Shown piece by piece: positions 5,430 through 58,141 of a DNA stretch of 64,000 nucleotides (positions are counted from its first letter, which is position 1; each line of letters begins with the position of its first letter). The stretch is from Chloranthus sessilifolius (taxonomy: Eukaryota; Streptophyta; Magnoliopsida; Chloranthales; Chloranthaceae), in the NCBI GenBank assembly GCA_021018995.1, contig CM037585.1, forward strand, positions 70,620,646 to 70,684,645. Direction: 5' to 3'. Below the pieces are notes generated by a model. The model had not been told where the DNA came from. It did no database searches and was given only the letters and a program-made list of their open reading frames with translations. The position numbers were made by a program, and so were the translations under genes.

Positions 5430-5708
5430 CAGTTTAGTTACAGTATCTGTCACTAAATGCTCAAATTTCCTGCATCTGGTTTGACCCTTTGACCATCCCC
5501 TTGGTTAAGGTGGGTGTCTTGAGGTTGGTTGCACCCCCTTTGAGCTTATTCGCAACGCTTAAGTCACCCATGGTCTCACCCCATCATCCACCATTAAAAC
5601 CAGTTTCCCAAAACCCTAGGACCTTGAAATCCTAGAAAACCTTAGATGGGGGATTACCTAATTGCTAAACCAATTAGCTCTTAAGTAAGACCTAACCCAT
5701 CCCTTCTC

Positions 5709-5717
5709 TATAAATAG
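5709..5717 (+). promoter_or_regulatory. LTR TATA box (TATAAATAG)
   Basis: TATAAATAG sits in CTCTATAAATAGAGAGG, and the same block is found in the related LTR near 51376 and, inverted, near 53515. It is the likely core promoter for the genomic RNA of element A. Confidence 0.75.
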
Positions 5718-6421: not shown

Positions 6422-6439
6422 TGGCGACTCTGCTGGGGA
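6422..6439 (+). other. Element A primer-binding site
   Basis: TGGCGACTCTGCTGGGGA starts with the obligate TGG (pairing with the tRNA CCA end) two bases after the LTR end. The tRNA donor is not assigned here. A site with the same first six bases occurs in element B at 42285-42302. Confidence 0.85.
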
Positions 6440-7265: not shown

Positions 7266-7380
7266 GGCGTATATAATATATACACCCAGCAAAAATCCTC
7301 AGATTTTAGCTAGGTGTATATAATATATACGCCCAGTTAAATCTGCCCCTTTTTGGTCGGGCATGCATAACATATACGCC
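7266..7380. promoter_or_regulatory. Palindrome array in element A leader (3 copies of 21 bp)
   Basis: Copies at 7266-7286, 7313-7333 and 7360-7380 have exact 47-bp spacing and 26-bp spacers. The first two are exact reverse complements of each other, including their one departure from the consensus, so the pair plus spacer is a 68-bp inverted repeat. Element E has three differently worded palindromes with the same spacing in its leader. Confidence 0.85.
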
Positions 7381-13143: not shown

Positions 13144-14400
13144 ATGCAAAAAGCCATAAAAATAGAAAAAATACCAATTCCAAAAATATTATCCTTTAAA
13201 ATTCCCAATAAAATTAAAATTGATGTCGTGATACCCGTCCCACGTGAAGCCGACCCCTTTCCTGTAGAAATACAAGAAGAGGTAGGAGTCACGAGTCTAG
13301 ATGAGGAATGTCAAACCGATGAGCTCCCCAATGAGCTCCTCAAACAATTTGCCAATTTTGAGCATGGCCCTACCCCGATCGTCGAAGAGACGGAGGATGT
13401 TAATTTGGGCACCAGAGAGGCCCCTAGAATCACCAAAATTGGAACATCGCTGTCCCCTACGGAGAGGAAAGGTATGATAGACTTCCTTCGGTCATACCAG
13501 GACGTCTTCGCATGGTCGTATGAAGACATGCCCAGTTTGGATACCGATCTGGGTGAGCATGAGTTGCCACTCTACCCTGATTGCAAGCCTGTTAAACAGA
13601 AGCTGAGACGTCTCCGACCTGAATTGATGTTGAAAGTCAAGGACAAGGTCATTAAGCAGTACGACGCGGGTTTCCTCATGGTATCCAAGTACCCCCAGTG
13701 GCTGGCCAATATGGAAAGGTTCAAATGTGCATTGATTTTCGAAATCTCAACAAGGCGAGCCCTAAGGACGACTTTCCATTACCCCACATTGATATCTTGG
13801 TTGATAACACCGCTAAGCACGGAATGCTCTCATTTATGGATGGATTCTCAGGCTACAAGGTGATGCGTTCATCACTCCCTGGGGAACCTTCTACTATAAG
13901 GTGATGCCATTCGGGCTCAAAAACGCTGGGGCAACCTACCAGAGAGCAATGACGGCCCTATTCCACGACATGATGCATCAAGAGATCGAAGTGTATGTCG
14001 ACGACATGATTGCCAAATCACCAGAAAGGGACAACCACTTGGTAAATCTTCAAAAGCTGTTCGAGAGGTTGAGAAAGTACAAGTTGCGGTTGAACCCCCA
14101 GAAGTGCGCGTTCGGCGCTATGTCCGAAAAACTGTTGGGCTTTATCGTCAGTAGGAGAGGCATCGAGGTCGACCTGACCAAGATTAAGGCCATCACTGAA
14201 ATGCCACTACCGTCTATAGAGAAAGAGGTCAGAGGCTTTTTAGGTAGAATCCAGTACATCAGTCGGTTCATTGCACAGTTAACTCTGATATGCGCACCAA
14301 TCTTCAAACTACTGAGAAAGGACTCACCAGTTGAGTGGAATGATGACTGCCAAGCTGCATTTGACAAGATCAAGGGTTACCTCCTAAATCCTTCGGTATT
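13144..14400 (+). pseudogene. Element A reverse transcriptase (fossil)
   Basis: The RT copies the element's RNA into DNA in the virus-like particle. The N-terminal approach includes FAWSYEDMPSLD (about 13505-13545) and LPLYPDCKPVKQKLRRLRPE. The palm follows with the CIDFRNLNKASPKDDFPLP block (about 13725-13785), MPFGLKNAGATYQRAM (13904-13951) and the catalytic YVDD in VYVDDMIAKSPE (about 13991-14027). The thumb side has LRLNPQKCAFG and LGFIVSRRGIEVD. The family call is certain; the gene is broken. Confidence 0.9.
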
Positions 14401-14740
14401 GGTACCACCTATACCTGATAGACCCCTGATAATGTACCTGTCCACGACAGAGTTTTCCATGGGCTGTGTGTTAGGACAACATGATGAGACAGGAAGAAGA
14501 GAGCAGGCCATCTATTACCTAAGCAAGAAGTTCACTGACTATGAGACGCGCTATTCTCATCTGGAAAAAGCATGCATGGCACTCGTTTAGGCTACAGAAA
14601 GACTTCGACACTACCTGTTATCCCAAGCCATTCTACTTCTAGCACGGATGGATCCGTTGAAGTACCTATTCGAGAAACCTACTCTCACTGGTCGAACTGC
14701 ATGATGGCAACTACTCCTATCAGAATTTGACATTACTTAT
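14401..14740 (+). pseudogene. Element A gypsy-type RNase H (fossil)
   Basis: This is the usual Ty3/gypsy RNase H joined to the RT, here a degenerate form. Visible blocks are RPLIMYLSTTEFSMGCVLGQ (about 14420-14480), AIYYLSKKFTDYETRYSHLEKA (split around 14510-14575) and a C-terminal TLTGRTA-like stretch near 14690. In Tat elements this domain is thought to act as a connection because a second RNase H follows, as it does here. It is broken. Confidence 0.8.
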
Positions 14741-18659: not shown

Positions 18660-19867
18660 TCACCCTACCCTTTCTTTCTCCAAAGCCTCGATGAAAGCCA
18701 GCCTCTCTACAGAAAGAGACTCGATCCTAGTCCAGAGAATCACCTCCTTATGTGGCCAAGGCCCCGTCTCTATCACGTGTATCGAAACTGGGCTAGGGGC
18801 AGGTAATTCCTCAGATGCCAGCCAAACCTCGTAATCAGGAGAGACGACGCCCCCCTGAACTAAGCTGCACATGTGCGTCGATTGGCGGGTCTCCCAGAGG
18901 GCGGCTATGCGGTCAAGATCACTAAGAGAACCCCGAGAGAATATCAGAGAGCACAAAGGTGGCATTACGGTACACGACACATGTTGGTCGTATCTGGATT
19001 GACGAAGCACCCGAGATGGAAAATAGAATGTGCTACCTGTCAAACCCAGAAGCGTGATACCCTCACAATCCCGAGAGCGAACAATTGGAAAGGTTCCATC
19101 CGACCAGGGAAGTTGCCAGATCAATGCCACATCTGACAGCCACGTGCTTAGCTCCTCGGCGCTCCCATGAGGCAATCTCGAGCACCAGATCAGAAAGCCC
19201 CGAGCCACATCCCCTCTTATCAAGCCCAGTCTCGGCACAGGCCCCATGATAGCCAAATGCTCTCCTAACAAGATCTAAACAAGGAGCGGGCTCTCGCTGG
19301 GAATCCCAACCCGGCCTGAGGCCGAGGCATCCATGCCCCGATACATCTCAGCGAGGACCAGGTGTACCAATGAACGACTTCCCTCCAATTCAGTCAAGAC
19401 ATCGCACAGCCCAAGGAAAAGGTCTCACCCCCAGTAAAGAAGAGGACTTCCGACAACAAATAAAGGGCAAAGGCCTTTACATTGAAGGGATCTCGAATAG
19501 GCAACTTTCGAAGACTCGAGTCACCAAAAAGTTCTATTAGAAATTTCACCGAACACCTGGTGGACCCTCCAGCGAAGCATTTCTCATACCCACCCTTTTT
19601 TAAACCGAGAACCGCGCGGACCGCCCTTGCATACCCCGGTTTGGGCACTACTTTGGCAAGGCCTCGATGCATCTTCAAGCCAGTAATAGAGGCCAACTCT
19701 TCCAAGGTTGGGGTCAGCTCCCTAGAGCCAAATCTAAAGACATGGGCCCTATGGTCCCACGACACCAAAGGCGCCCGCAGCAGGTTGGGCAATAGAGGAA
19801 TAGCAAGGAGGGAGGAAAGGCGGGACAACCTGAGGCAATCCAGAACAGTGAGCTCGCTCTCAGCCAA
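18660..19867 (-). pseudogene. Antisense cargo gene 2: DUF7745-like protein (fossil, element A)
   Basis: This gene runs opposite to gag-pol. The upstream block (about 19867-19394) has LRLSRLSSLLAIPLLPNLL and then WDHRAHVFRFGSRELTPTLE followed by ELASITGLK. That matches the opening pattern of the plant DUF7745 family, which has a large hydrophobic half and then W-x(5)-CFxFGxxELxPTxEEY. The downstream block (19271-18660) has SDVALIWQLPWSD and GITLLGLTGSTFYFPSRVLRQ, matching the DUF7745 block around the N-x-PLIG-x-G-x-inYNP-x-LxLRQ motif. The biochemical function of DUF7745 is not known to me. Its likely promoter side (right) carries three 21-bp palindromes at 20168-20283. It is broken; the family call rests on my reading of motif patterns. 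Confidence 0.65.
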
Positions 19868-21391
19868 GCTATCATGCCATTTTCATAAAAAAACTGGGCC
19901 CCGGGCCCAAACAGGGAAGTATACTAGCCCCAGCCCCCGTATGAGAACTTGGGCCCCTTGTCGAAGGCGGGTCCATGGACGTACAAAGATGTTCTTTATG
20001 AAAATCAATCAATGTATGGGGATGAACCCCCTAGAAAAAATAGAAGGGAGAGAAGGAAAAAGAGGAGCAAAAAAGGCAAAGCCTGAGTAAATAGCGAAGC
20101 AAAGAGGGCTGGGCGCGGGTTATAGGGAACCCGTCGGGCATCAGTCATAGGAGGCATAGTCATAGGAGGCATATATAATATATACGCCCAGCCAAAAATT
20201 CAAATTTTTAGCCAGGCGTGTATATTATATACGCCAGGGTAATGTGGTAGTTATGTTTGCCTAGCGTATGTAATATATACGCCCAGTTAAAAGCAAGGAA
20301 GTTAAGGCTTCCCTCACTTTGGTCCTTTTTTGTTCCCCAAGGAGGAACATTTTTGCTTAGCCCACTTTTTCATCTCGGGGCAGCCCACAGGCAGGCATGC
20401 TCGCGCACCCATGGGGAACCTTCGGATGACACACCGTCTGTAGGTTATATATAGAGAACCACCTGCAAGATCAACCCCATCATTGGAGGGTTGCCGGCTC
20501 GTTTCAGGCAAAAGAAAAGGAAACCAGCAAAGCAAAGAGATAATCAAACGGAACATTCACATAAAACATGAAAATTATAAAACCATCCAAGAAAAATGTG
20601 TGCTATTTTAATAGTTTATTACATATCCCCCAAATAAACCAAAAGTCTAAATTGTTTCTTTGTGTCATATTTTTAGAGAATGAACTAGTCCTGGGCAGCC
20701 CCCTTCGACTTCTTCCGGCGCCGGCTCGCGCTTTGGAAAGTACGAGTCTACCCCACCCAAGTCCACGCCTGAGAAATACAACTGAGCAGAGAACGCGACT
20801 CCTTTTCACGAGCACGCTGCAGGAGCACACCAAAGGCCATCAGGTAGAGAAACAGGCGGAAAGTAAATAAGAAAATGATTAGGTTGGGTCAGTATTCACT
20901 CACCACTTCGGTCTCCCTAAGCCTAACAATGTTACGATAATATTCGGCTTGACTCACTGCCAACTCATAATCCTGGCCAGTAAGAAAAGGTGTTAGTCAC
21001 ACAGGCCATCAGCATAATTCAAAGGGAAAGAGAGCAAAGCAACAACGTAGAGATTACCCCAGGGATCAGCTCAGGAGGTGGGACCTGGATAGCTTCAGCA
21101 GAGATACGTGCCTTCTCGGCCACGTCGGCACACACGCTCAATAAGAAAGCATCGTCCAAAAGCTTGAAAGTCCCCTGGACCTTGACGGGCGAACTACCAG
21201 AAGCACCAACACCAGAAGGGTCAGAGGGTCCAGCACCTGAGGCCGCACCAGAGCACCGAAAGGGTCGGAGGGTCCAGCACTTGTAGCATCATAAGGAGCA
21301 GCCGCCTCATCCCCCTCATCTGAGTCGCCGCCCTGCTCGAACTATAGAGAGAAAAATTTTGTTGTTTAAAATGGTAGGTCAATCAAAGTAA
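19868..21391. other. Element A spacer between the two antisense genes
   Basis: It contains the palindrome cluster (20168-20283) and a TATA-like TATATATA on both strands near 20444-20451. Simple GC-rich coding-like stretches at about 20690-20870 and 21060-21330 (minus strand, rich in Ser, Gly and Ala) may be the worn 3' end of the PMD gene. No domain could be named. Confidence 0.4.
20168..20283. promoter_or_regulatory. Palindrome array upstream of antisense gene 2 (3 copies)
   Basis: Copies at 20168-20188, 20215-20235 and 20263-20283 have 47- and 48-bp spacing. The spacer between the first two is itself nearly self-complementary (GCCAAAAATT then AATTTTTAGCC), so the first two copies and spacer form one 68-bp inverted repeat. 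It lies about 300 bp upstream of the DUF7745-like frame on the minus strand. Confidence 0.82.
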
Positions 21392-23102
21392 TCACAAGGA
21401 GGCTGCTAAATAAAAAGAGAAAAGGGCATTACCTGAGATCGGTCCGCCAAAAGCTAAAAAGTTAGCACTAGGCACAAAACGGGGCAGCAAGAAATGATAG
21501 GGCAGAGAATCGTACCATGTCTGATACCCCCCAGGCAAAAGAAGGTCGTTAATAGGAATCCCATGGTGAAGGAAGCGAGCAGTAAGCTCGTCAATAGAGC
21601 CTTCCGGAGCCAACACATCGGCTGGAGGAGCTTAGGGCACGACAAAGAGAGGATGATACTGATGAACCACTCTCTCTCCTAAATAGTAGGCCCTAGTCCA
21701 GGACCCGTAGAGGAAGATAATGAGACGGTCCAACAAAAAGCGAGAAGGACCCACTTAAGCAAAGTTCCAGAAGGGAAACCCTATGTAGGGGTCGAGGATG
21801 ATCTGCAAAAGAAGAGAAAATGGAGGAAGGATGCACACATTTGGTCAAAACCCATAGCACACAAGTGCTATCAAATTTATAAAAAGGGAATTGTTATACC
21901 TGCTCTGGGATCAGCAGGTCGAACTGAGAGCGCAGCCCTAGCTCCAAATGCTTCATACCTACGTCCCGATAGCGGCTCACATGCCAGTTACTCATGAGGG
22001 GGAACGTAGCAACTTCAGACTGAAGCAGAGGGCGACCCGGCTGGAAATTGAGATACGCCCAAACCTGAGAAAGCAAGCAGATAAAAACAGGTATGCCATA
22101 AAAAAAAAATTGGATAAACTAAAACCAAGGATAAAGTACCTCAATTGCAGGTCAGAAACCCACAATGGAGCTAGACTCCCCAAGAACGGCTCGCTTTAGG
22201 CTGGACATGAGCACCACATAGCCAGTGCCGCCCCAATCGAATCGATGCACATTGTCCCAGTTCACCATGAAACTGAGAAGGGACAACAAGACCCGCCCTC
22301 CGCTGGTATTTGAGAGAAGAGTTTTACCTAAGAGGAACAGCAGAGAAATACGGGCTAGCATATGTGCGCGTGCGGGCTCGAGGTAAATGGCCATGTTAGG
22401 CTGGCCCTAGTCCACTAACTCATGAGTCTCAAACTGATCAACCAGCTAGGATAGCTTGACCTCAGAACCTCAAATATTCCCAGAGGTCGGGTAGGCCCCT
22501 ATCAGTCGAATCACCTCCTCCTTATTCGGTGTATGGGTAGGTACCACAGGCACCCCTCCAATACGGACCCCAGTAATCATAGACCAATCCGCAGGTGTAA
22601 AGGCCATCTCTGCCACGGCCATGTGAAATGTCATGGTCTTGGGGAGAAAACGCTCTATCAAGGCTTTCAAATAGGCCATATCGGCCCTCACGGCGGGGCA
22701 TAAAATGAAATCCCCGAAACCGGCATCGGTAAGCAGGTCCTTCACCGCTGGGGGAAGGTAAAGCACGAGACGCTGGAGGTCAAACCAGCCACCCCGAAAC
22801 ATGATATGGGGAGGAGGCTACAAACAGAAGGCATCAGTCAGATAGGGGCAAGGTGGTATAATGAAGGCATCAAAGGAAAATAAAAGTAGAAAAAGGGGGG
22901 GGGCTCATCTGTTTACCTCACCGGTGATCCCAAAGTTGGACATGTGGGTATGCTGACAGTAGAAGAGGCCGGTATGGGCAACCTCGCCTTGCATTTCATA
23001 CCAAGGCTGGGAAGAGCGCTGAGACATGATGAACTGCTCCCCATGGGTACCGTAGGCCATCTCCGGCCCTTCTTGCTGATCATGCCTTTCGTCGCCGGAC
23101 AT
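21392..23102 (-). pseudogene. Antisense cargo gene 1: plant mobile domain (PMD) protein (fossil, element A)
   Basis: This gene runs opposite to gag-pol. From a start at 23102 (SGDERHDQQEGPEM) it shows the PMD/aminotransferase-like pattern. The blocks are FDLQRLVLYLPPAVKDLL, AGFGDFI, LKALIERFLPKTMTFHMAVA and then WSMITGVRIGGVPVV (about 22780-22540). Next come ARISLLFLLGKTLLSNTSGG and FDWGGTGYVVLMSSL (about 22360-22205), then VWAYLNFQPGRPLL (about 22063-22020). Intron-like gaps with GT/AG borders separate the blocks at about 22917-22823, 22141-22064 and 21897-21800. PMD is found in plant MAIN/MAIL proteins, linked to transposon silencing, and in several transposon classes. Antisense ORFs in this position are known for Tat elements. 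The copy is broken; the family call is strong. Confidence 0.78.
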
Positions 23103-23800
23103 CCTGAAAATATGAGACCCATCGGCATATGAAAAGGGTGCCAAAAAAAAAAGAAAAAGAAAAATATGCACTAATCCAAAAAATCTCCAAAAAAAATGTG
23201 TGTGTGTACTAATCCATCAAACAAAAAAAAGAGGGGAGAAAACAAAAAAAGAGGGGGAATAAGACCAAAGAAAAATTTGTACTAACCCATCAACAAAAAA
23301 AATGTGTGTGCGTGCTAATCCGTCCAAAAAAAGGGGGAGAATGCATAAAACCAAAAAAAAATTCACTAAAACAAAAAAAATGATAAATAATATATATATG
23401 CACTAATCCAAAAAAAATAATAATAAAAAATGCACCAATCCATCAAATAAAATGCACTAATCCATCAAAAATAAAAAAAAAAGAGAAGAAGAAATAAAAT
23501 GAAATGAATGAATGATAAATAAAAAATAGGCCTAAGAAATCAAGCATTTCAACAAAGAAAGAAGAGAGGAAAGAAAAGGAATATAAGCATCACATATGCT
23601 TAGAGAAAAATCAATAAGCATTTCACCACAAAGAAGAAGAGCATCAAACAACAACATTATCAAAATTCAAAGGAAAAGGGAGGGAAGGGTAATGATTACC
23701 TTCAATGGAAGAGGAAATAGGTCCAAAATCGGCGGAGGATAAACATCTTTTGATCAACACCCGCAACCCCCGGTAATAGAACTCAAAGAAAATCAAATGC
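23103..23800 (-). other. 5' side of the antisense PMD gene: A-rich with repeated motif
   Basis: From about 23165 to 23480 the motif TGCACTAATCCATCAAA occurs about eight times in varied form, separated by A-runs. On the minus strand this is a GATTAGTGCA repeat just upstream of the PMD start. No coding sequence was seen. Confidence 0.65.
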
Positions 23801-23883: not shown

Positions 23884-24019
23884 CTCGGACAGTTTTAAAA
23901 ACTGCCAATTCTGGTCAGGTGTATGTAATATATGCGCCCAGCCATTTTTCACTGCATTTTGGTCAGGCGTATATGTTATATACACCCGACCAGAAATGGC
24001 AGTTTTTAAAACTGCCCGG
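23884..24019. promoter_or_regulatory. Composite ~135-bp inverted repeat with two 21-bp palindromes
   Basis: Palindromes lie at 23918-23938 and 23966-23986. They are flanked by longer arms: ACAGTTTTAAAAACTGCC then ATTCTGGTC on the left, answered by GACCAGAAAT then GGCAGTTTTTAAAACTGCC on the right. The whole stretch is one imperfect inverted repeat centred near 23952. It lies about 800 bp upstream of the antisense PMD start. Confidence 0.82.
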
Positions 24020-25977: not shown

Positions 25978-27022
25978 TGTAGACACCCAAATTCGGCCCA
26001 AGGCCCGATCAGTCTATACTCCGGGAGAAATGCACCCCTGTGTTTCTGATGGCACCCCTGAACCCTTGGAAATCTATCTAGACCTTTAGGAATTATCTAA
26101 AACTCATTAGAACCATTCCCCCAACCCTTAGAGATCGCCCCTAAACCCTAGGATCCCTTCCCAAACTTAATTTAAACCCTTCTGAGCATTTGATGGGAGG
26201 AGAGATACAAATATTTATACTAACCACTTCTGAGGATGATTCACATACCATTGGAAAGAGGGCTTCTCCAGCTTTCCAACGAGCCAAAGATCACCCGATT
26301 TGGAGTTGTGGTTCAAAAGTTATGACTGTTTGAAGTTTAACATAAAATGATAACTTTTGCTCAGGCGTATGTATTACATATGCCCAGCCAATTTGGCCCA
26401 AAATTGGTCAGGCGTATATATTATATACGCCTGGCATTTTTGGGACAAGTTTGGCCTGGCGTATATAATATATACGCCCAGCATAGATGGCCAACAACGC
26501 GGGCACCCATCTTCTCAGTTTTCCCCTTGTTTTCTTGATTTTTACTGTGCATAAGCTAGGCGTATGTAATATATATGCCCAGTTTAGCTATAGTATCTAT
26601 CATCAAATGCTCGAATTTCCTCCATCTGGTTTGACCCTTTGACCATCCCCTTGGTTAAGGTTGGTGTCTTGAGGCTGGTTTCACCCCCTTTGAGCTTATT
26701 GGTAACCCTTAAGTCACCCATGGTCTCACTCCATCATCCGCCATTAAAACCAGTTTCCCAAAACCCTAGGACCTTGAAAACCTAGAAAACCTAAGATGGG
26801 GGATTACCTAATTGCTAAACCAATTAGCTCTTCCCAAGGGGTTGAATTTTTTTTGGTGAAAGATTAGAGAGCTCTTAAGAGAGAACCCTAGTGAGAGAAA
26901 ATGCCACTTATTTTCCAGAATTCCAGCAAGCTTAGTTCATCTTTTTCAATCCATTTCCACCATTAGATCACTCCTTTTAGCTAAAGTCTAGCCTTTGGCC
27001 TCACCCTACACTTCCTATTTTA
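25978..27022 (+). repeat. Element A 3' LTR, truncated
   Basis: It starts with the same TGTAGACACCCAAATTCGG as the 5' LTR and follows it, about 6% diverged, until homology stops at 27022. The remaining third is missing. It keeps the four palindromes at 26364, 26411, 26458 and 26559, with the same 47/47/101 spacing as the 5' copy. Confidence 0.92.
26364..26579. promoter_or_regulatory. Palindrome array in element A 3' LTR
   Basis: Four 21-bp copies lie at 26364-26384, 26411-26431, 26458-26478 and 26559-26579. Compared with the 5' LTR, the second copy is closer to a perfect palindrome here. Confidence 0.85.
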
Positions 27023-27309: not shown

Positions 27310-27688
27310 TTGGGGGATTGCGCACTTCACTCTGAGTGCATAAATTAATTGCACGCCCGAGGGAGTGCGTGCAATCCGAGCGTCAGAAGATAATTACGTG
27401 CCATTTCCAAGTCGTTTACCCGAATTTAACGTAGGGTACTGGGCACGCAATTAAGGCGGTGGCTGGTCGCTGTATGGGCGATCATTGGCATTCGTGCGCC
27501 ACTATATGGGTGCCTGAAATGATTACGTGCCCAACAGGATGTGCTCAACCAGATGGTCGGATTAGTCTGGGCGGGCGATGATTAGATTACGCGCTCAAGG
27601 TCGGTCGAGTAATCCGAATTATGCGTAGATATTGTGACGCGGGATTTGTTTGAGCGTGGGAATTTAAGCGCGTGATTTTGGCGTGTCT
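27310..27688 (+). promoter_or_regulatory. Upstream region of the plus-strand PMD gene, ATTACGCGC-type motif array
   Basis: About nine varied copies of ATTACGYGC / AATTGCACGC occur in both orientations (for example near 27316, 27347, 27393, 27440, 27521, 27585 and 27668). One exact inverted pair is TTGCACGC and GCGTGCAA around 27349-27375. Similar motifs cluster in element B's own LTR at 44041-44460, but the two regions do not align end to end. Confidence 0.55.
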
Positions 27689-27867: not shown

Positions 27868-30800
27868 ATGGAGTTTAAGGGTGTTGGTGGGTGCAATATT
27901 ACCCTTTCTAATTTAGTGAGGATATTAGGGGCAGAGATAGGTGAGACTTTTGAGGTTCTAATTGATGTTGCCAGGGAGGCAGATGTCAGGGAGGTAGTTG
28001 GAGAGGAGGTATTGGAGGTTGACTAGTTGGGGGTCAGCGAGGAGGCGCTCGAGATTGAGCAGGGGGGCGCTGAGGATGACGGTGAGAGGTTTGAGGGTGC
28101 GATTCCTGAGGATGAGAGAGATGAGGGTGCGGCTGAGAGTGTGACTGAGGAGCATCGAGATCATAGACACTTCTCGATGGTGGATTTCTTCACTCGAGGC
28201 CGGGTAAGCACTCATGAGCAAGAGTTCTTCCATTTTCTTAGCCACTTAGGTTATGACATAAGCTTATTAGGATCTTGCAACCCTTCTAATTTATGTCGAA
28301 CTTGCATTAATGATCGATTGTGTGCACACTCATGCATTATGATGGCATCTAGAGGTAGGTCATGTTTCTATTTAGTTGTTCTCATCATGTTTTGTGTTTG
28401 TTGTAAATTGTTATCATGTTTGGGGCACATTTGACTTGCTTTTAGTTTTAAATTTGTTTGTCTTTTGTCGTAGGTATGTGTTAGCTTTATTATTATTGTT
28501 TATGTTTCTCTTGATAGGAGCCCCCGCAGCTGGCTATCAGCTCGGCATGGGCTGAGTCTCGTACTTGGTACCGTGCCTTGTCAAAGTTTTAGCAGGCATG
28601 ATTGGTGTCTTTTGGTTTCGAACCGATCCTGGAGCTGGAGCCCTTTCATGTTGATTGTGGCCTAATTGCGGCGATCTTGGAGAGGTGGAGGGATGAGCAT
28701 CAAGCGCTTCTCTTTCCAGTTGGCATGATGTTACCGACTCCAGAGGACTGGGTCCGCATCACCGGTTTTCATTTTGAGGGAGAGCTGATCATGGGGCGGA
28801 TGGAGGGGCATTATCTAGAGGTGAGTGAGGATATCTGGGGTGTGCCATATAGGTCAAGCAGCTCGAGGCCAGGTGTAGGTCCGATCACTTGGTTTTTTGA
28901 TATGTTTGCTAGTGGCTTCGTCCCCCCGAGGGGCCATTCGGAGGTGAAGGTGACCTATGAGGCGTATTGTGCAGAAGTAGCGGGTCGGGAGCCCGTGGTT
29001 GAGCCAGGGTTAGCTGCGGATGGGTGAGCTCTGAGCGTTCGTGATGCACTTCCTTGGTGCTGTACTTTTCTCTTCTTCGACTCAGGGATGCTTCATAGGG
29101 TTATTTTTTATGGTTCTTGGAGATTTTGATCGAGTCCCCACCTATGTGTGGGGTGTAGCCATGTTGGCACATCTCTATGAGCAGCTTTACCATCGAGGAC
29201 AGGGCATCACATCGATCAGAGGTTTCCTTCCATTCATCTAGGTGAGTCTTGATTAATTAATGTCATGATGTCTTTAGTTTGGTTAATTTTAGGTCATTTA
29301 ATGGTAAACGTTTCTCCTTGTGTGTCATTGTTGTTATTGTTATTTTCCTTTCAGTTTTTAGCGTATGATCATTTCGCTTTTCTTTGTCCGAGAATTTCGT
29401 TGGAGGTGACATCCACCTTTCCACGAATGCACGTGTGGAGAGAGGCATTGAGGGGCCACCGTTGGTCTTCAAATCTTCAGACTGCACGTGGTCTCTTTGA
29501 GGATATGCACGCGGGGTAGGTATAGATTGTCAGGGTGTGTTCTTTTTTCATTTCGGTCTTTTAGGATCTGGGTCTTCATTGCAGAGCCGGCTTGTTTGTT
29601 TGGTTGTAGGTGATTTAGAGGCCTTATGCGGATGAGGAGGATGCGGATGTACCAATGATTCAGTCTGGTCGGCCCTTCTTTGACGTGGGCATATTGGTCC
29701 ATTATTTTAAGAGGGTAGAGAGGATCCACACTTCTCAAGTAGTGCGGCAACTGGGGCTTGCTCAGGGAGTCCCTTAAGAGATTCTCCACAAAGTGGCGAA
29801 GAGGATGACCAACCCTCCTGGCCAAAATTTTATAGAGTGGATGGTGCTTCAGGTAGCAGATTTTAGAGCCGGGGGGACCAGGGTTAGGGGGGCACGTGAC
29901 AAGGCAGATGCCCGTGAGTATGTGCGGTGATTTAGTGCATTGGGTGGCGGGCGCCTCTTCACACGTCCCTTCCATGGGAGTGGCTCTTTTGCGATCGGTG
30001 GGCTGGAGTTGGCATCGGCTTTGAGGGAGAGGTTGGTTGCGTTGGAGCAGGGTCATCTCACCGCGAGCATACAAGGGCCATTAGATGCTCTCCATAGGGT
30101 GATGGAGCGGATGGGGTGTGCTCCTCATCCAGATGAGGAGATGCTGCATTTTTTAGCCTCCTCAGTTGCTCTGGCCAGGGGAGAGGAGGATGAGTTGGGG
30201 GCTCAACTAGCGGAGACTCGACGGCTCCTGGTGAGTTAATTTATATATTTTTTTTGGATTTAGTTTTTTGGTCGTTCTGATATGGTTGTGGTGTCTCATT
30301 TTATTTTATTTTGGACAGTCTACGAGGGAGGATGAGGTTGCTTGTTAGACGGGTGATGATCGGGTTGTTACGCAGTTAGCAACAGGCCGGTCGAGAGGTG
30401 GAGGCTAGCTTATGATCTGAGATTAATCGATTGGTAAGTGTCCTTATAATTTAGCATTGTTAGCATCGTGAGCTTGTCAACTAAGATGTTTATCGTTGTT
30501 CATAGAGAGATAAGCTGGCCGCCGAAGGTTCTGTTTTGACATTTGATACATCTTCAGTTGCTTCCTCTAGTCAGGAGGATTCGGCGATGGCTCTGCTTTG
30601 GGTCTAGCTAGATCATTAGGTAAGTTCCATTCAATCTTGTTTACATCATTGCCTTAGTTTGTTGGATGTCATTATTTTTCTTTCTTAGTAGTTTACTAAT
30701 ATCATGTGGTATTACAATGTCAGGTTGCCGAGGGTCTTCAGACAGGTTACCGAGGGAGGAGACTGCCGCCTCTCTATGCCCAGAGAACCAGGTAAAGTTT

Positions 30801-43270: not shown

Positions 43271-44490
43271 CTAAAATTCCTAAAAATGGGGCGTTTGGGT
43301 TCGCTATGCTAAGGAGGATTGGCCTCGTTCCCGAGTACCCTCCGTAAGCTCCCTTGGGCAAATCGGGTGGCTAAGATTAAAGGTAAATTGGATTTTAAAC
43401 CGTGAAATAATATTTTTAGGCTTTTTAGAGTTGATTTCGGAGTAATAATTATGAATTGAATTGTAAACTAGAATTATAAAAGCTAGAGTTAATATTTCAG
43501 ATTTTTGGAGTTATTAAACTAAGAAATTAAAATTAAAAAAACTAAATTTTTAGGACTGAATCCGGGTCCGAAATCAGAAAATCAGGCCGTATGATTAAGG
43601 ACTAGTTCTGAATCAAAGGATTATAACCAGAAATTAATCCTAGGACTATAAATTGAGATTTTAGAACAAAATTAGAGCCTAGGGTCGGTGTATTGGACCG
43701 TCAAATTAAGGACTGGTTCTAGGAATAAAGAACTAGAACCAGATATAGAGAATTACGGTCCGAAAAGGGTGCTACGGTCTAAGACTGAAGCTAAATTCCT
43801 AAACCTAGAGATTATAAGCTATGGTAGGAAACCAAAAAATAAATTATTACCTAAGGGCCAGGGCTGCGGAGAGAAATCTCAAAGATTGCAAGCTTGAATC
43901 TCGAAACCATGATTAGGGTGCTCTATGGGTTTGTCCTTGGAGTTCTCTGGTTTCGGAATCCTAAAAAAAAAATTTGTTCTCTCTCCAAAATTTGCCAGCC
44001 TCCCGTGTTGTCTAAGAAAAAAATCTTTTATAGGTTTTCCTTCAATTACACGCCCTGTTTTAGGCATTCAATTGAATTACGCGCAAGTTTCCTCGTGCTT
44101 AATCACTTTGAGTCGGTCACCGACTCAGTGAGCGACTGACTAGCTTGCTCAGCAAGTTTCCCAGTCCTAATAAAGTTGAACTAATTGCGTGCTTGGTAGT
44201 ATGTGCATAATCTAATTGAGTGATTCTTCAGAAGTGGTCAATCAAGGAAATTTCGGGGTTAAGGACAGTGAGGCTAAGCCGGGCGTAGGGCAATTGCACG
44301 CTAGTTGTGTGGCGCTCAATCCAATCGAGCGTCTACTTTCAGGCACGCGATCGAGTCTCAAGATGGTCTGAGAAAGAAAGTTTGGTCTAAAAGGGGGACT
44401 GATTGTGCATTTGTGGTTTGGCATGCAATCAAATTACGCGCGAGTTTTCAGACGCTTAATTCAGAGTTGTTCGGGTCTGGTCCCTAGTCT

Positions 44491-50417: not shown

Positions 50418-52010
50418 TGTAGACACCCAAACTTGGCCCAAGGACCGATCGAGAAACATTTTGAGAGAGGCGCATCTCCAAGCTTTTGATGGCATGTATG
50501 GAACCTTTAAGAACCCTTCTGAAACCTTAGGAGCAACTCTAAAACCTTAAGAATCACCCTAGATCCCTTAGGAACCTTATCGAACCCTTCGAAACCCATC
50601 CCGACCCTTAGAAACCTTTTGAAATCTTAGGAGACACTCTAAAACCTTAGGAATCACCCTAGATCCCTTAGGAACCTTCCCGAACCCTTAGACCATCCCG
50701 ACCATTAAAACCCATTTCGGACTTGAACCTAGCTTTCTCAAGCAATGGATAAAGAGTGGTGCACCAAGACTAGTTATGACCTTCTATTGTGATCGAATCT
50801 CATACCATTGAAAAGTAGAAGTCCTCATTTTTCTGACAAGCCAAGAATCACCCCAATCGGAGCTGTGTGCGAGAAGATATCGCATTCCGAAAAGTAAGGG
50901 CAAAATGGTAAATATACTGTAAACCCCCCTAAGGATTTGGCACAAGTATTACTTGTGCCAAGCCATTTCTCCATATAAATGGCTTAGTTACGCCACATAT
51001 AAGGTGGGCCCCATCACGAGGAGCCAATTTCTAGGCCACTGAGGAACATTGTTTTACTGTTCCTAAGCCTGGCGCAACAATTAGTTGCGCCAGGCTTATG
51101 AACAGTAACCCGAGGTTTTTGCCTCGAATTTCGAGATTGGGATTTCACTTGTTGACCATATTATCCTTTGGAGTGTGTTTTACTAGTTCTGTTGCACCCA
51201 TTTACTACCTATGTACAACCCCTTAAGTGGTTTAAAGCCCCAACCTATCATCCACCATTGGAGCAACTCTTCACACTTTTCAAGGCTCCAAAAACCTGAG
51301 GAAACCTTAGATTACCAATTACCTAATTGCTAACCCTAATTAGCTTTTAAATACCCTCCTACCCTCTCTTTTTCCTATAAATAGAGAGGCAGCGCTCCCT
51401 TTACAAAGGCTTAAAAAAATTTGCAATTAAGAGATTAAGGAATCCCTTCTCTCTCTCCTTTAGTGCACCACTCCCGTAAAAATTCCAGAACTTTAAAACT
51501 TCCTTAGACCTTAGCATTGCACCCAAAAGCTCTAGGTTAGGTGTGTGTTACCCCCTAGCCTTCCCTCTCTACCTCTTATCTATTAAGCCCTATGAGTTAG
51601 AACCCCATTTCTCATCATACAAGCCTTCAAAAGCTCACCGAAGCAAGCCAACGCAAGGCTCCACAGTGGTGCAACAAGGCTCGAGAGCTCTAGCTCTCTC
51701 CTCTATTCCTCTACCTTGTCAGTTATTCGTCTATCCTCCCATTTGTGTTGTTACGCCGCCGAGTTTTCGATAGAAACGGAGGGGCACAAATAAGATTTTA
51801 AGACCCTTTGGGCAAGAGGAAGCCTTTTTCTTTTCTTTTATATTATTTTTGTTTTGGCCATAAGTAGCTACTGCATTAAGCAGTTTGATTGGGTGCCTAA
51901 CATCTTCCCAATCGATAACCGAAGCCCCTACCCAAGAGCCTTTGGCGTAGACCGGATTCAGAATCATATTTGTGGCACTTCGGTGCTTATAAAATCTGGA
52001 GACCCATTTT
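50418..52010 (+). repeat. Element E 5' LTR
   Basis: It starts TGTAGACACCCAAACTTGG and has a TATA box in CTATAAATAGAGAGG near 51376. It follows the inverted copy at 52799-54349 until about 52010, where homology stops before the expected LTR end. Two 21-bp palindromes lie at 50939-50959 and 51071-51091. Confidence 0.82.
50939..51091. promoter_or_regulatory. Palindromes in element E LTR
   Basis: 50939-50959 is a perfect 10+1+10 palindrome (arm GGCACAAGTA). It is followed by AAGCCATTT and its exact reverse complement AAATGGCTT. 51071-51091 has arm GGCGCAAC, and its flanks TAAGCCT and AGGCTTA extend the inverted repeat to 15-bp arms. Confidence 0.85.
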
Positions 52011-52057
52011 GAATTGGGACTACTGCTGTCAAACAATCTGGAGAACCATTTTACTTT

Positions 52058-52172
52058 GGAGCCACTATTAGTTGCGCCAATGCAAAATGTCCTAAAAGAA
52101 CACTGGCGCAACTATTAGTTGTGCCAGCTTTATTCTGGGAACTTTTGCTGTGGCGCCACTATTAGTTGTGCC
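52058..52172. promoter_or_regulatory. Palindrome array in element E leader (3 copies)
   Basis: Copies at 52058-52078, 52105-52125 and 52152-52172 are exactly 47 bp apart, with 26-bp spacers. The wording is GGCGCAAC, TATTA, GTTGTGCC. This is the same count, length and spacing as in the leader of element A, with a different sequence. Confidence 0.85.
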
Positions 52173-52798: not shown

Positions 52799-54349
52799 TG
52801 TATAACTGTGAGATTTTTGACAATCCCGTCACGACGATGTACTCCCAAATGAAATATTTAGAGTCGCCACCTGAAGCTTTTGGTGTCTCAGGAAACCTAG
52901 ATCAATTTTATAAGCATCGAAGTATCACAAAAATGACCCTAAATCCGGTCCACACCAAAGGCTCATTGGTAGGGGCTTCTGTTATCGATTGGGAATGTGT
53001 TAGGCACCCAATCTACCCACTAAATGCGGTCTCTACTTATAGCCAAAATAAGAATAATAAAAAAGAAATGAAAAAGACTTCCTCTTACCCAAAGGATCTT
53101 AAAATCCTATTTATGCCCTCCATTCCTACCGAAAATTCGGTAGCGTAATGACACAAATGGGAGGATAAAGGAATAACTGAGAAGGTAGTGGACTAGAGGG
53201 GAGAGCCAGAGCTCTCAGGCCCTTGTTGTAATGCTGTGGAGCCTTGTGTTGGCATGCTTCGGTGAGCTTTTGAAGGCTTGTATGGTGAGAAATCAAGTTC
53301 TAACTCCTAGGACTTGATAGCTATGAGGTAGAGAGGGAAGGCTAGGGGGCGGCACACACCTAACCTAAACCTTTTGGGTGAAATCCTAAGGTATAAAGGA
53401 AATTTTTGAGTTATGGAATTTGTATGGGAATGGTGCACCCTAGGAGAGAGAGAAGGGATTCCTTAATCTCTTAATTGTAAATTTTTTCAAGCCTTTATAA
53501 AGGAAGGGGTGCCTCTTTATTTATAGGAAAAAGAGAGGTTTGGAGGGTATTTAAAAACTAATTTGGATTAGCAATTACGTAATGGGCAATCTAAGGTTTC
53601 GTAGGGTTTTTGGAGCCTTAAAAAATATGAAGAGTTGCTCCAATGGTGGATGATAGGGTGGGGCTTTAAACCACTTAAGAGGTTACACATAGATAATAAA
53701 TGGGTGCAACAAAACTAGCAAAACACACCCCAAAGGTCAAGATGGTCAACAAGTCAAACCCTAATCTCAAAATTTGAGGTAAAAACCTACAGTTACTATT
53801 CATATGCCTGGCGCAACTATTAATTGCACCAACCATATATACAGTAAAATAGTTCTTGAATAGTGTTCAGGAAGTTGGCTGGCCACAGGAGGCCTACCTT
53901 AATGCTGGCGCAACTATTAGTTGCGCCAAATCCCTAGGGGTCTCCACACTTTTTACCATTTTACCCTTTCTCTTCGGAACGTGACATCTTCTTGTGTACA
54001 ACTCTGATTAGGGTGATTTTTAGCCCGTTGGAAAGCTGAGGACTTCTACTTTTCAATGGTATAAGATTTGATCATAGTAGAAGGTCACAGATAGTACCCA
54101 TACACCACTCTTCATCTAGTGGTCGAGAAAGCTAGGTTTAGGTCTGGAATGGGTTCTAAGGGTCGGGATTGGTTTTTAAGGGTTCGAGAAGGTTCCTAAG
54201 AGATCTAGGGGGATTCCTAAGGGTTTGGAATGGTTCTTAAGATTTTGGAAAGGTTCCTAAGGGTTCCATACATGCCATCAAATGCTCAGAGGTGTGCCTC
54301 TCTCGAAATGTGTCTCGATCGGGCCTTAGGCCAAATTTGGGTGTCTACA
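52799..54349 (-). mobile_element. Solo LTR of the A/E family inserted in element E gag (fossil)
   Basis: On the minus strand it runs from TGTAGACACCC (54349) to CA (52799) and aligns with the LTRs at 50418 and 4828. Flanks GGCTC (52794-52798) and GGCCC (54350-54354) fit a 5-bp target duplication with one change. With the 5' LTR of E it makes an inverted pair about 0.8 kb apart. Confidence 0.85.
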
Positions 54350-54354: not shown

Positions 54355-56102
54355 CCATATCCAAGGAGGAACAGTTGAAAGAATAGTTAGACAAAATTTA
54401 GAAATAGTTGTTGAAGATGGGTGGTGCTAAAATCCATGCCACAGACTTCTCAGATTTGTATTTGTTCGCTGAGGTCCCCTTGCCACCCAAATTTAAAATG
54501 TCGACTTTTGACAAATACAATGGCACCGGCAATCCCATAGCACACCTTAAGTCTTATTGTGGGGACAGGTGCTAATATAGAGGGGACGAAAGACTATTGA
54601 TAAAGGTCTTTCAGAAAAAGTTTGACCAGTCCAGCCTTGAGATGGTTTACATCTTTAGAATCATCTATGATGAAAACTTGGAAGGACTTGCTGAACTTGT
54701 TTCAGGAATAATATGTCTACAATATAAACATTGAATCGTATAAGTCAGATTTGGCTTGTTTGAAGTAGAACTCGAATGAGACCTTTAGTGATTATTTAGG
54801 GCGTTGGAGAGCGTTGGCAGCTCAGGTTAGAAACAGGATACCTGATGATGAACATATAAAATTGATTTCCAAAAATACTCTACCTATAATCTCAAACTTT
54901 TTAGTGTACCAGTAGCAGTCCAGCTTTGGTGATTTGGTAAGGAATGCCAATCGCTGTTAAGATGTTATTAGGGAAGGTCGCTTGAACAAGAATGCATTGA
55001 GTGGAGCCAGTGGGGTTAGAAGGTTTTTAGAATAGAGGAACGAGAAGAGGATAGGGGCCGATGTCTAGAACATTGCCAACATCAGGCCCAATAATAATAT
55101 AACCCCATTCTAATTTCAAGCAGCCCAACCATCACCAGTCAAAACTGAGCAGATGTAGAGAGCAGGGAATGGGAAAGGAATGCAGATGACTCCGAAGCAG
55201 AGGAGAGCTCGCTACCACTGAGTGTTTACACCCCTGGGGCAATCTTTAAGTGTACTTTTGCCTTTACTAATAGAAAAGGGATTAGTTACTGTTCGTGAAC
55301 CGCAACCTCCTCCTCACCCAATCCCAAAGAATTATGACCCTAATACTCACTGTAATTTCCAATAGGGTTTGGGTCACGCGACTGATCGCTTCTTCCCATT
55401 GAAGCACACAATCCAAGATTTTATTGATGTCAAGAAAATTATTCCACCTGCACCTTCTCAAGTAAACTAGCACGTGAATATTCATCAGGTGTCATTACCT
55501 CCACATCCTACCGGAGGAGCAGGTCCTAGACCCACCATCGAGATGATAGAAGAATGTGAGGAGTTTAAATTTGATCCATCACATTATATCAGTGATCGGG
55601 AGAGCTCTGTGGCACCATTGCCGAGAAATTGTGAAGAAAGAAATATCGGGGTGATTGAACCCCTGAATTTGTCAGATTATTTTCCCAACCCAACACCATG
55701 AATCGAACCCTTAGATTTTAGGGCTTATTTTCCATCACCCACACCTGTCAATTATGTCCATATAAATGCCTATCAACCATATACTACCACTCCCATCAAT
55801 TACCCGATAGCCCATCAGGCCCCCAATCCCCCGCCAGCACCTATCAGCTACCAATGGCCTACTCCTACCCTTTTTCCCCTAGTGCAACCACCCACAAGCT
55901 TCACCACCACCATCTGGTCCAATTTTGCCACCCAACCATCTATCACCGAAGTAAATCAAGTGTTACCCACACCTCTAGAGCTCACAGTGGAAGTGCATCC
56001 GATATCGGCAACTATACCATTTCAGATTTTGGGACCAACCTATAATCCACATCAGGCCCCACTGAGTTATGAACAAATATATATCAATGCTGGCAGCAAT
56101 AG
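54355..56102 (+). pseudogene. Element E gag, capsid core and C-terminal part (fossil)
   Basis: It resumes after the solo LTR with KMGGAKIHATDFSDLYLF and KYNGTGNPIAHLKSYCGD (about 54415-54560). RIPDDEHIKLISKNTLP-type sequence follows near 54840, then the YDPNTHCNFQ / GLGHATDRFFPLKH block at about 55330-55400. Further blocks are RPTIEMIEECEEFKFDPSHY (55540-55600) and a proline/tyrosine-rich tail. Each block has its counterpart in element A in the same order. It is broken in many places. Confidence 0.82.
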
Positions 56103-58141
56103 ATGTTGTCGCTCCAAGTGTGCCATAATTGTGTGCATTATGAATCAAAAATTAAAGAATTAAAGAATGCTAGGTTATATGGATGTTAACTTATGAAAGG
56201 GATATCAGCACATTGGGGCTAACACTGGCCTGCAAGATCAGGGCCAATTGTAGCAAGTTTTAAATGTAAGTGAGTAAAAGATCGTCCACAGGGAATTGAT
56301 TTAAAATTTAAGGTAAACCTCCAGATCTGTGCTACCAGATCTGGCTCTATAATTATCTAAAAAAAGAATAGATAAAAGAGAGTGTTGGATTGTGTCACAT
56401 TTAACTATAAGCAAATAGAGAAAAGAACTAACTACATGATCCAGATCCGAGTTGGGGAGGTGTTTAAAATAAGACAAATGCAGAAATAATAGCTTCATGT
56501 ACTTTAGCCTCTGAATTTTAATGGAGAATCTGTAGTTCAACAGAGCAGATTCAATCTTCATCTGGCTACCAGCACAGATGTAAGAGAAATAAATCCAATT
56601 AAGGAATAGGTTTAGACTTATGGTCGTGATCATCACTTAAATGGTCACAGACACTTAGCTAGCCGTGGCCTATTCTTTAGTTCAGAACATGAACATCACT
56701 GTAAATGCTGCTAGAATTAGGTTACCAACGCTAATTCGCACAGGGGTGATGAATTAAGGGAAGTTGCATGCGGATGAGTGAATCTAAAGAAGTCTAATGC
56801 ACTAAGGTGATCATTCAGAACCCTCGACATGACTCCAATGGAGAAGACACAAATTCTGACAAGAACCTTTAAAATCCAAAATTACAATTCTGAGCACGGC
56901 TTCTTAGAGAGCCCTCGGACTTACGATACGAGCTTCTCGAGAGAGCCCTCGGACTTCTGATCTTGAATCCGAACTTGGAAGTACAAATCACTCACAATGG
57001 CTCTCAAAGGTAAACTACAAGAAGGGATTACAGGGGGTTCAGATAAGCTATCTGACCGGAATGAGGGAAACAGAGATGAAAACTCTAAAATCTGGATACC
57101 CAAATTGGGCAAATGGTTCGTCTATTTATAGTTTTCCCTAAGTCCAGCTCAGATGTGTATCAACCAATAGGAGTCGTGCACCAGGATCCGGATCTGATTA
57201 CGCCAATGGCGCTTGATCCGGTTCATTAATCGAGGAAGCGAGGCATCAATTACATTATGCATTTTGAAATTGTTTGAGCTTACGGAAGTTCCCTGTGTAA
57301 TTTAACTTTGGGCGCTCACATGGGTTGGAATATGCCTTCGGATCTTGATTAGAACCTTCCGGAATGTTCCTGGTCTTCTGATTGCATTGGGCGTGCAAAG
57401 TTTCTGAAATACCCTTGGACGGTCAAATCCCGAATGCCATTTCACATAGTTTAAGGGCTTTTTCAAAAGTAGTTAGAGTTTCTAGAAGTTCCCGCCAAGT
57501 AATTTCATCTTTGGGTGTTCACATGGGGTGGAATATGCCTTTGGTTCGTGCTCGAATCTTGGAATGTCTCGGGCTTTTCAATGCATTGGGGCTCGTCGTG
57601 ATTACTAAATTGCCCTTGTTAAAGCTGCGAATCTCGAATACCTTTTCGCAGAGTTCAGGGCCTTTTGAAAGTTCAATGACTTCAAGCTCGTTCGCAGTTC
57701 AATCTTCTTTTCGAGGAGTGTTTTCTTCTTTCGCAAAGTTCAAGGTTCTTTCTGAAAAGTGCAAGTTCTTCTTGAATAGTAGAAGTTCTTTGCGAATTGA
57801 ACTCTAGGCTCCCATTCTTCTTTGCGAATAGTAGAAGTTCTTTGCGAATTGAACTCTAGGCTCCCATTCTTCTTTGCGAATAGTAGGAGTTCTTTGCGAA
57901 TGGCTTTCTCTCTTGCTTCAGGTCTTTGTCTGCTCTTTTAGTCCCTCTTTTGCCATTGTTTTCTTCCTCCTTCTTTAAACTTGACATGATCGACTTTTGA
58001 TCTTTTTGGGATGCTTTTCGGATTTGGACCTGTCTGATTGGTTAGCTGTAAAATGCACACTAAAGCACTTATTTAGTCTTCTCAAGGGTCTTTCAAGGCT
58101 CATGTTTAGGGGTGAAAAATGGTATTTTTCACTACTTAACA
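56103..58141 (-). repeat. Element D 3' LTR
   Basis: On the minus strand it starts TGTTAAGTAGTGAAAAATAC at 58141, just after a polypurine tract. The left end is placed at 56103, where homology of element E's gag to element A's gag stops; it is approximate. It contains CTTTGCGAATTGAAC-type motif repeats (57430-57905). Confidence 0.75.
57777..57903. repeat. 52-bp tandem repeat in element D LTR, 2.4 copies
   Basis: Units start at 57777, 57829 and 57881, each TAGTAGAAGTTCTTTGCGAA, TTGAACTCTAGGCTCCCATT and CTTCTTTGCGAA. The first two are identical, so the duplication is recent. Confidence 0.93.

What the first reader, a model, noticed from the sequence alone, without database searches (positions are those of the whole stretch)
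50939..52172. Related element E keeps the 21-bp length and 47-bp spacing but has a different, still palindromic, sequence
Element E's leader has three copies at 52058, 52105 and 52152, exactly 47 bp apart, the same number and place as in element A's leader. The arm is GGCGCAAC instead of GGCGTATATA. Both arms have changed together while GGC...GCC ends, length and spacing stayed. Geometry conserved over changing sequence argues that the palindromic form itself matters, for RNA or cruciform structure or for a co-evolving binding protein, rather than simple descent.
Basis: partly seen in the sequence, partly recalled or inferred. Interest (0 to 1): 0.88.

Follow-up and report, generated by a model that had tools for sequence, protein, structure and literature searches.

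The report
Retrotransposon's shared palindromic promoter sites
A family of giant plant jumping genes carries the same short mirror-image DNA signal beside its main promoter and beside the likely promoters of its own extra genes, and the signal changes as a matched set from family to family, which suggests each family uses its own DNA-binding switch protein.

Summary
Observation confirmed. Elements A and E are related Tat/Ogre-like LTR retrotransposons in a 2.17-Gb plant genome. Each leader has three 21-bp palindromes exactly 47 bp apart, at homologous places. The A and E types differ at three of ten base pairs, all compensated. The wider pattern is stronger. In A the same palindrome also lies in the U3 promoter and upstream of two antisense genes of the plant-mobile-domain (PMD) kind. 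I predicted E-type palindromes there in E copies. Of ten copies fetched, four show gene aORF2 and all four have E-type sites upstream; none has A-type. A distant element, C, has another motif, GCRYGYAATT, whose eight exact matches in the window lie in its U3 or its antisense PMD promoter; two U3 sites form 21-bp dyads. Best reading: family-specific binding sites of a dimeric regulator shared by an element's promoters; the self-encoded PMD protein is the leading, unproven candidate, resembling VANC or foamy-virus Tas. Against: leaders also fold strongly as RNA, E leader sites 1 and 3 keep an uncompensated mismatch, only one of four copies with aORF1 hits has the site there, another PMD lineage (10 loci) lacks such palindromes, and binding was not tested.

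The parts
52058..52078 (.). E leader palindrome 1
   Evidence: E-type, 2 mismatched pairs
52105..52125 (.). E leader palindrome 2, 47 bp on
   Evidence: 1 mismatched pair
52152..52172 (.). E leader palindrome 3, 47 bp on
   Evidence: 2 mismatched pairs
50939..50959 (.). E U3 palindrome (GGCACAAG variant; perfect)
   Evidence: two compensated pair differences from the E type
51071..51091 (.). E U3 palindrome, centre 295 bp before the TATA box at 51376
53907..53927 (.). U3 palindrome of the inverted E-family LTR (perfect E type)
   Evidence: opposite A 5308 in the alignment
53810..53830 (.). second U3 palindrome of the inverted E-family LTR
   Evidence: opposite A 5409 in the alignment
50418..51995 (+). 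E-family LTR, 3' end missing (starts TGTAGACACC)
52861..54349 (-). inverted E-family LTR lying inside E (lower end placed by the GGCGACTC word)
54369..56160 (+). E gag-like region, similar to A 9451 onwards
4828..6421 (+). element A 5' LTR (3' end placed by the PBS-like TGGCGACTC at 6422)
5214..5429 (.). A U3 array: 5214, 5261, 5308 (47/47) and 5409
7266..7380 (.). A leader array: 7266, 7313, 7360 (47/47)
13817..14587 (+). A reverse transcriptase / RNase H
   Evidence: RVT_1 4e-18, RT_RNaseH_2 1.1e-19
18663..19882 (-). A antisense gene aORF2, PMD-like, two open stretches in different frames
   Evidence: sub-threshold in A; E-family homologue L012 is PMD at 1.9e-9, over the cut-off
20168..20283 (.). 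A array P2 upstream of aORF2: 20168, 20215, 20263 (47/48)
21022..23216 (-). A antisense gene aORF1, plant mobile domain, apparently several exons
   Evidence: PF10536 7.8e-9, over the cut-off, at 22473-22817
23918..23986 (.). A array P1 upstream of aORF1: 23918, 23966 (48)
25978..27022 (+). A 3' LTR (truncated) with U3 sites 26364, 26411, 26458, 26559
44044..44441 (.). element C U3: five exact GCRYGYAATT sites, two of them in 21-bp dyads (44064-44084, 44421-44441)
27347..27677 (.). element C antisense PMD promoter region: seven GCRYGYAATT sites at <=1 mismatch (3 exact), TATA-like box at 27688
28602..29024 (+). element C antisense PMD exon
   Evidence: PF10536 4e-8, 33.3 bits, just under the 34.9 cut-off

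Best explanation
The palindromes are double-stranded-DNA binding sites (two 10-bp half-sites about one central base) for a dimeric, family-specific regulator that controls the promoters of a Tat/Ogre-like retrotransposon: the U3 promoter of the genomic RNA, perhaps the leader, and the promoters of its antisense PMD genes. Shown here: shared sites across regions within an element; family-specific sequence; compensated arm changes; a prediction met at aORF2 in E copies. Inferred: that these regions are promoters, that a protein binds, that it is a dimer, that it activates or lifts silencing (rather than represses), and that it is the element's own PMD protein, giving a feedback loop like VANC/VANDAL or foamy-virus Tas. 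I put about 0.7 on 'protein-binding regulatory sites' and about 0.4 on 'bound by the self-encoded PMD protein'.
For: (1) A-type sites lie in U3, leader, P1 and P2 of A, and at <=3 mismatches nowhere else in the window. (2) Within an element the cores agree across regions (mean identity 0.82 in A, 0.83 in E) while 13-bp flanks do not (0.46 and 0.36; random 0.30); between A and E at the same region cores agree only 0.62. (3) A and E cores differ at three pairs, all compensated; covariation score 0.398 against 0.196 shuffled (0 of 500) and <=0.170 slid. (4) Prediction (noted) met: 4 of 10 E copies have aORF2 in the fetched 3' window, and all 4 have two or more E-type sites (<=4 mismatches) 215-447 bp upstream of the hit; L020 also has an E-type pair 48 bp apart upstream of its aORF1; no A-type at <=4 mismatches in any of the 20 windows. 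(5) Element C: the 8 exact GCRYGYAATT matches of the 64-kb window all lie in its U3 (5) or before its antisense PMD exon (3) (chance 0.52); 7 sites at <=1 mismatch in that 391-bp region against a maximum of 4 in 2000 shuffles and of 1 in 1234 other (overlapping) windows; two U3 sites form 10+1+10 dyads. Six other C-family copies: 34 sites at <=1 mismatch in the zone before the PMD gene (6, 6, 5, 7, 6, 4), 22 in a second zone (6, 2, 7, 0, 6, 1), 0 in the 2.1 kb between. (6) In C the clusters end just before TATA-like boxes.
Against: No binding data, and PMD is not a known DNA-binding domain. E leader sites 1 and 3 keep an uncompensated mismatch. The leaders also fold well as RNA (z -7.4 and -6.2). 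In A the spacers of different arrays are partly alike, so spread by copying 47-bp units can explain part of the within-A sharing. At aORF1 the prediction is weakly supported: of four E copies with any aORF1 hit and its upstream in view (L010, L014, L016, L020; L014 and L016 hold only one short piece each), only L020 has sites there; L024's upstream was cut off. Five of the ten E copies (L016, L018, L022, L026, L028) have no E-type site at all in the 3' window. Ten stop-free PMD loci of another lineage have no such palindromes (0 of 10). The C motif was first noticed while reading U3 and promoter region together; at <=1 mismatch 11 of its 25 matches in the window lie elsewhere; C copies share descent and the zones were drawn after looking.
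Confidence: 0.6

Rival explanations
1. The sites bind a host transcription factor that drives every promoter of the element; families differ because they use different host factors or tissues, as plant LTR enhancers do.
For: C clusters lie just before TATA-like boxes, and U3 sites of A and E lie 290-295 bp (centre) before theirs; host-factor enhancer repeats in U3 are known for plant retrotransposons (recalled: Tnt1, Tto1).
Against: Three half-site types differ within one genome while the dyad geometry recurs; one host factor would hardly tolerate compensated changes at three pairs. In the window full A-type sites (<=3 mismatches) and exact C words occur only in their own element, although one exact A half-site lies at 38926 inside C.
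Confidence: 0.21
2. The palindromes act as RNA hairpins in the genomic RNA (packaging, dimerisation, splicing or export), selected as stems.
For: Leader arrays fold far better than shuffles (z -7.4 for A, -6.2 for E); the two E leader spacers pair with each other (0.65 inverted identity).
Against: No G.U excess in the sense strand (leader 4 G.U, 4 C.A, 3 other). Sites also lie upstream of antisense genes and in U3. Element C shares half-sites singly, not only as stems. Palindromes fold as hairpins whatever their function.
Confidence: 0.12
3. No function in the form: short palindromes are kept symmetric by template switching during reverse transcription or replication, and spread by unit copying and recombination.
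For: Spacers and whole arrays are partly dyadic (133-bp inverted repeat at P1); an extra stretch with its own inverted repeat sits beside 50939 in the E LTR.
Against: Does not explain why the same family-specific core recurs in four distinct noncoding places with different flanks, or element C's dispersed half-sites before TATA-like boxes.
Confidence: 0.13

Closest known systems
VANC/VANDAL sequence-specific anti-silencing (Hosaka et al. 2017, PMC5735166; PMC10398659; passages)
   Same: A transposon family has its own short motif, repeated in noncoding regions, changing together between subfamilies; there the element's own protein binds it.
   Different: VANDALs are DNA transposons (Mutator-like; recalled) and the motifs are short and arrayed in one orientation (YAGTATTAY); here an LTR retrotransposon, 21-bp dyads on a 47-bp lattice, PMD genes, and no binding shown.
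Foamy virus Tas with LTR and internal promoter (PMC8670036, PMC4929722; starts of abstracts in a listing)
   Same: One self-encoded factor acts on both the LTR promoter and an internal promoter.
   Different: Different element and protein; here the internal promoters would be antisense and binding is untested.
Tat/Ogre elements with PMD extra ORFs (Neumann et al. 2019, PMC6317226; Ikeda et al. 2017, PMC5418596; passages)
   Same: Tat-type coding region, extra ORFs with plant mobile domain (reported in 57% of Ogre elements), Gypsy-encoded PMD clades.
   Different: The passages seen report no palindromes or motif shared by LTR and PMD promoters.
Retand antisense TRP28 ORFs (Vicient 2025, PMC11963269; abstract and passages)
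   Same: Antisense ORFs between pol and 3' LTR, suggested to bind DNA and regulate; tandem repeats nearby.
   Different: Another domain (Transposase_28); no shared cis motif described in the passages seen.

Membership tests
Tat/Ogre-type Ty3-gypsy LTR retrotransposon (element A) | Ty3-gypsy-type RT, RNase H and integrase | tested here: met
   RVT_1 and RT_RNaseH_2; integrase core at 15683-16033
Tat/Ogre-type Ty3-gypsy LTR retrotransposon (element A) | two LTRs in direct orientation with a PBS-like sequence after the 5' LTR | tested here: met
   4827-5922 matches 25977-27022 at 90%; TGGCGACTC at 6422. Which tRNA it fits was not tested.
Tat/Ogre-type Ty3-gypsy LTR retrotransposon (element A) | second RNase H (aRH) between RH and INT | not tested
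   not searched for; Ogre versus Retand therefore not decided
Tat/Ogre-type Ty3-gypsy LTR retrotransposon (element A) | extra ORF with plant mobile domain | tested here: met
   PF10536 7.8e-9, 35.6 bits against cut-off 34.9
VANC-like self-encoded anti-silencing system | family-specific motif repeated in noncoding regions of the element | tested here: met
VANC-like self-encoded anti-silencing system | element-encoded protein binds the motif | not testable with these tools
   needs EMSA or DAP-seq
VANC-like self-encoded anti-silencing system | binding removes silent chromatin marks | not testable with these tools
   needs transgenic plants
VANC-like self-encoded anti-silencing system | carried by a VANDAL DNA transposon | tested here: not met
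   A and C have RT; E has LTRs and a gag like A's; so it may work like VANC but is not a member

The most novel reading that the evidence does not exclude
Plant-mobile-domain proteins of Tat/Ogre retrotransposons are sequence-specific dimeric regulators. Each element family encodes its own PMD protein and its own matching 21-bp dyad, placed at the sense promoter, leader and the PMD promoters, and protein and dyad co-evolve: a retrotransposon counterpart of VANC, and a first molecular role for the PMD.
Probability: 0.38. Interest if true: 0.88.

Novelty: new variant of a known kind. Interest (0 to 1): 0.72.

Why it matters
PMD genes are common in giant plant retrotransposons and share ancestry with host silencing proteins (MAIN/MAIL1), but what the domain does is not known (Ikeda et al. 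2017, PMC5418596, passages). A family-specific motif shared by the LTR promoter and the regions before the PMD genes gives a concrete target to test, and would explain how related families in one genome keep their control systems apart. I saw no report of it in the top listings of the paper searches aimed at it (10 to 20 papers listed of up to 593 found); the held library misses most subscription papers.

Tried and rejected
Rfam scan of the window: no match. Viral-contig scans for both palindromes: 0. Homologues of A's PMD exon in the protein collection: 20 candidates, none at E <= 0.001. Idea that sense-strand wobble shows RNA selection: not borne out. Idea that all PMD genes in the genome have 21-bp dyad arrays: rejected. 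I took ten of the 128 matches listed: the stop-free ones that begin near the start of the profile, without the three top, host-like hits and without C-terminal pieces, chosen before their upstream DNA was seen. None of the ten had a 21-bp palindrome at <=1 mismatched pair or an A/E-type site at <=5 mismatches in 1.7 kb (0 of 10). Nine of the ten are one related set; eight have at least one copy of the 14-mer AGTACCTTTAAATC at <=2 mismatches upstream, often in inverted pairs, but I could not tie them to an LTR. Twelve further E copies, 2-kb windows at the expected offset: no aORF hit (0 of 12); one, L038, had an E-type pair 48 bp apart. L014's E-type pair is 99 bp apart, the U3 spacing, and was not counted as a P2 site. 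The second antisense stretch of the C family was not identified: only open stretches were listed, no domain search was made there. Rows left out of alignment A1: 26364 and 26458, identical to 5214 and 5308. No structure was predicted.

Full report
What was claimed and what is there. The finding says that element E has three 21-bp palindromes in its leader, exactly 47 bp apart, at the place where element A has three of another sequence. That is right. E: 52058, 52105, 52152. A: 7266, 7313, 7360. Both sets are spaced 47/47. The leaders align at 70% over 483 columns. Such palindromes do not arise by chance here. In ten further E copies from the same genome the three leader sites are at exact 47/47 spacing in 10 of 10; they were found by similarity to this stretch.

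What the elements are. The window is plant DNA from a 2.17-Gb assembly (size; 'plant' from the PMD and the element type). A is a roughly 22-kb Ty3-gypsy element: LTRs 4828 to about 6420 and 25978 to 27022 (truncated), a PBS-like TGGCGACTC at 6422, RT/RNase H at 13817-14587 and integrase at 15683-16033. It carries two antisense genes between pol and the 3' LTR. aORF1 (about 21.0-23.2 kb) has a plant mobile domain over Pfam's cut-off (7.8e-9). aORF2 (18.7-19.9 kb) is sub-threshold in A, but its E-family homologue L012 is PMD at 1.9e-9, over the cut-off. This is the Tat/Ogre kind; whether Ogre or Retand in the strict sense was not tested. E is a relative (coding segments 41-76% identical in translation, the larger ones 54-76%). 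The copy in the window is damaged: last U3 site to first leader site is 987 bp, against 1829-1971 bp in other copies, and an inverted LTR lies inside. C (44710 down to about 27.0 kb, minus strand) is a more distant relative, 50% identical to A over 220 residues of RT, with its own antisense PMD exon at 28602-29024 (4e-8, 33.3 bits, just under the cut-off).

The palindromes are not only in leaders. A-type sites lie in A's U3 (5214, 5261, 5308, 5409), leader, 20168/20215/20263 (P2, upstream of aORF2), 23918/23966 (P1, upstream of aORF1) and the 3' LTR. E-type sites lie in U3 of two E-family LTRs and in the leader. Aligning U3 of A with that of the inverted E LTR puts A 5308 opposite 53907 and A 5409 opposite 53810. 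The centre of the last U3 site lies 290-295 bp from the TATA box in all three LTRs (TATA 5709, 51376, 53525).

Sequence change. The A and E cores differ at pairs 5/17, 7/15 and 8/14, all compensated. 50939 shows two further compensated pairs relative to the E type; its exact counterpart in the other LTR is uncertain because of a 35-bp gap there. On 21 distinct sites, 93.8% of pair cells are standard, with 23 double-changed cells against 8.7 shuffled, and a covariation score of 0.398 against 0.196 (0 of 500) and at most 0.170 for slid registers; the number of pairs with double change (4) is not above shuffles (382 of 500). There are only two families, so independent events are few. Not every change is compensated: E leader sites 1 and 3 have C at position 6 opposite T in 10 of 11 and 11 of 11 copies.

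Within an element, cores agree across regions although flanks do not (0.82-0.83 against 0.36-0.46, random 0.30), while A and E at the same region agree only 0.62 in the core. In A the spacers of different arrays are partly alike, so copying of 47-bp units is part of the history.

A prediction and its test. If all sites of an element serve one factor, E elements should have E-type sites before their antisense genes (noted). The window lacks that part of E. I fetched 9.9-kb 3' windows of ten E copies (ranks 2-11 of the 40 scored of 1482 candidates). Four contain aORF2 (L010, L012, L020, L024) and all four have two or more E-type sites at <=4 mismatches 215-447 bp upstream. For aORF1 the support is thin: of four copies with any aORF1 hit and upstream in view, L020 (PMD 8e-6, 25.7 bits, under the cut-off) has an E-type pair 48 bp apart upstream; L010 has none; L014 and L016 hold only one short piece of aORF1 and have none upstream; L024's upstream was cut off. 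Five copies show no E-type site in the 3' window. No A-type site was seen in any of the 20 windows at <=4 mismatches. Twelve further 2-kb windows gave no aORF hit and one E-type pair. On the antisense strand a CTTATAT box follows the P2 palindrome closely in L010, L012 and L024 but not in L020 (read by eye).

A third motif. C has no A/E palindrome. Reading its U3 and the region before its PMD gene, I saw a repeated word and wrote it from the U3 copies as GCRYGYAATT. The 8 exact matches in the window all lie in C's U3 (5) or before its PMD exon (3) (chance 0.52); at <=1 mismatch there are 25, of which 14 lie there. The 391-bp promoter region has 7 at <=1 mismatch; 2000 shuffles reached at most 4, and 1234 other, overlapping windows at most 1. 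I had read both regions before writing the word, so this is not fully blind. Two U3 sites have an inverted partner one base away, giving 10+1+10 = 21 bp, the geometry of A and E. I then took the first six stop-free C-PMD hits after the window's own (of 150 listed). In these copies there are 34 sites at <=1 mismatch in the zone before the PMD gene, 22 in a second zone (in 5 of 6 copies; 21 of the 22 in the four copies whose zone ends at a TATA-like box), and 0 in the 2.1 kb between; zones were drawn after looking and the copies share descent. The gene that the second zone would serve was not identified.

Mechanism. The simplest account is a DNA-binding dimer whose half-site differs by family and whose sites mark the promoters of the element. 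A self-encoded factor explains why sites in U3, leader and before the antisense genes change as a set; PMD genes are the obvious candidates because they are what those regions would drive. That PMD proteins bind DNA is not shown. The sign of the effect is also unknown; by analogy with VANC and foamy-virus Tas I favour activation or anti-silencing. Ikeda et al. (PMC5418596, passages) speculate on an anti-silencing use for PMDs captured by MULEs.

RNA. The leaders fold well as RNA (z -7.4 and -6.2), as palindromes must. Mismatch types give no sign of selection on the sense RNA. I keep this as a minor rival.

Limits. Ten stop-free PMD loci of another lineage have no 21-bp arrays (0 of 10), so this is not a rule for all PMD genes. 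Papers: PMC5735166, PMC10398659, PMC11963269, PMC7264820, PMC6317226, PMC9289625, PMC5418596 and PMC7156037 were read as passages, PMC11963269 also as outline and abstract; the foamy-virus papers only as starts of abstracts in a listing. Tnt1/Tto1 enhancer repeats are recalled.

Noticed in passing
23886-24018: The P1 array of A is one 133-bp inverted repeat (80%); a second palindrome, GGCAGTTTTTAAAACTGCC and a variant, flanks the pair on both sides at 31-bp offsets.
   Followed up: partly
17771-18192: 61-bp tandem array (6.8 copies) between A's pol and its antisense genes; tandem repeats there are reported for Retand elements.
   Followed up: no
42697-43106: AT-rich repeats of about 35 bp in the leader or LTR end of element C.
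   Followed up: no
52320-52335 and 7530-7545: A stretch ending CAG|GGGATC lies after the leader triple in both E and A, pyrimidine-rich in E, possibly a conserved splice acceptor (by eye).
   Followed up: no
L041-L050: Another PMD lineage in this genome has a repeated 14-mer (AGTACCTTTAAATC), often in inverted pairs, upstream of PMD in eight of ten loci; element type not established.
   Followed up: partly
57774-57901: 52-bp tandem repeat (98% matches, 2.5 copies) downstream of E gag.
   Followed up: no
50956-50995: E LTR has a 35-bp stretch absent from the other E LTR, with its own inverted repeat (AAGCCATTT...AAATGGCTT), beside palindrome 50939; it may come from template switching at a palindrome.
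   Followed up: partly
38926-38935: One exact A-type half-site (GGCGTATATA) lies alone inside element C.
   Followed up: no
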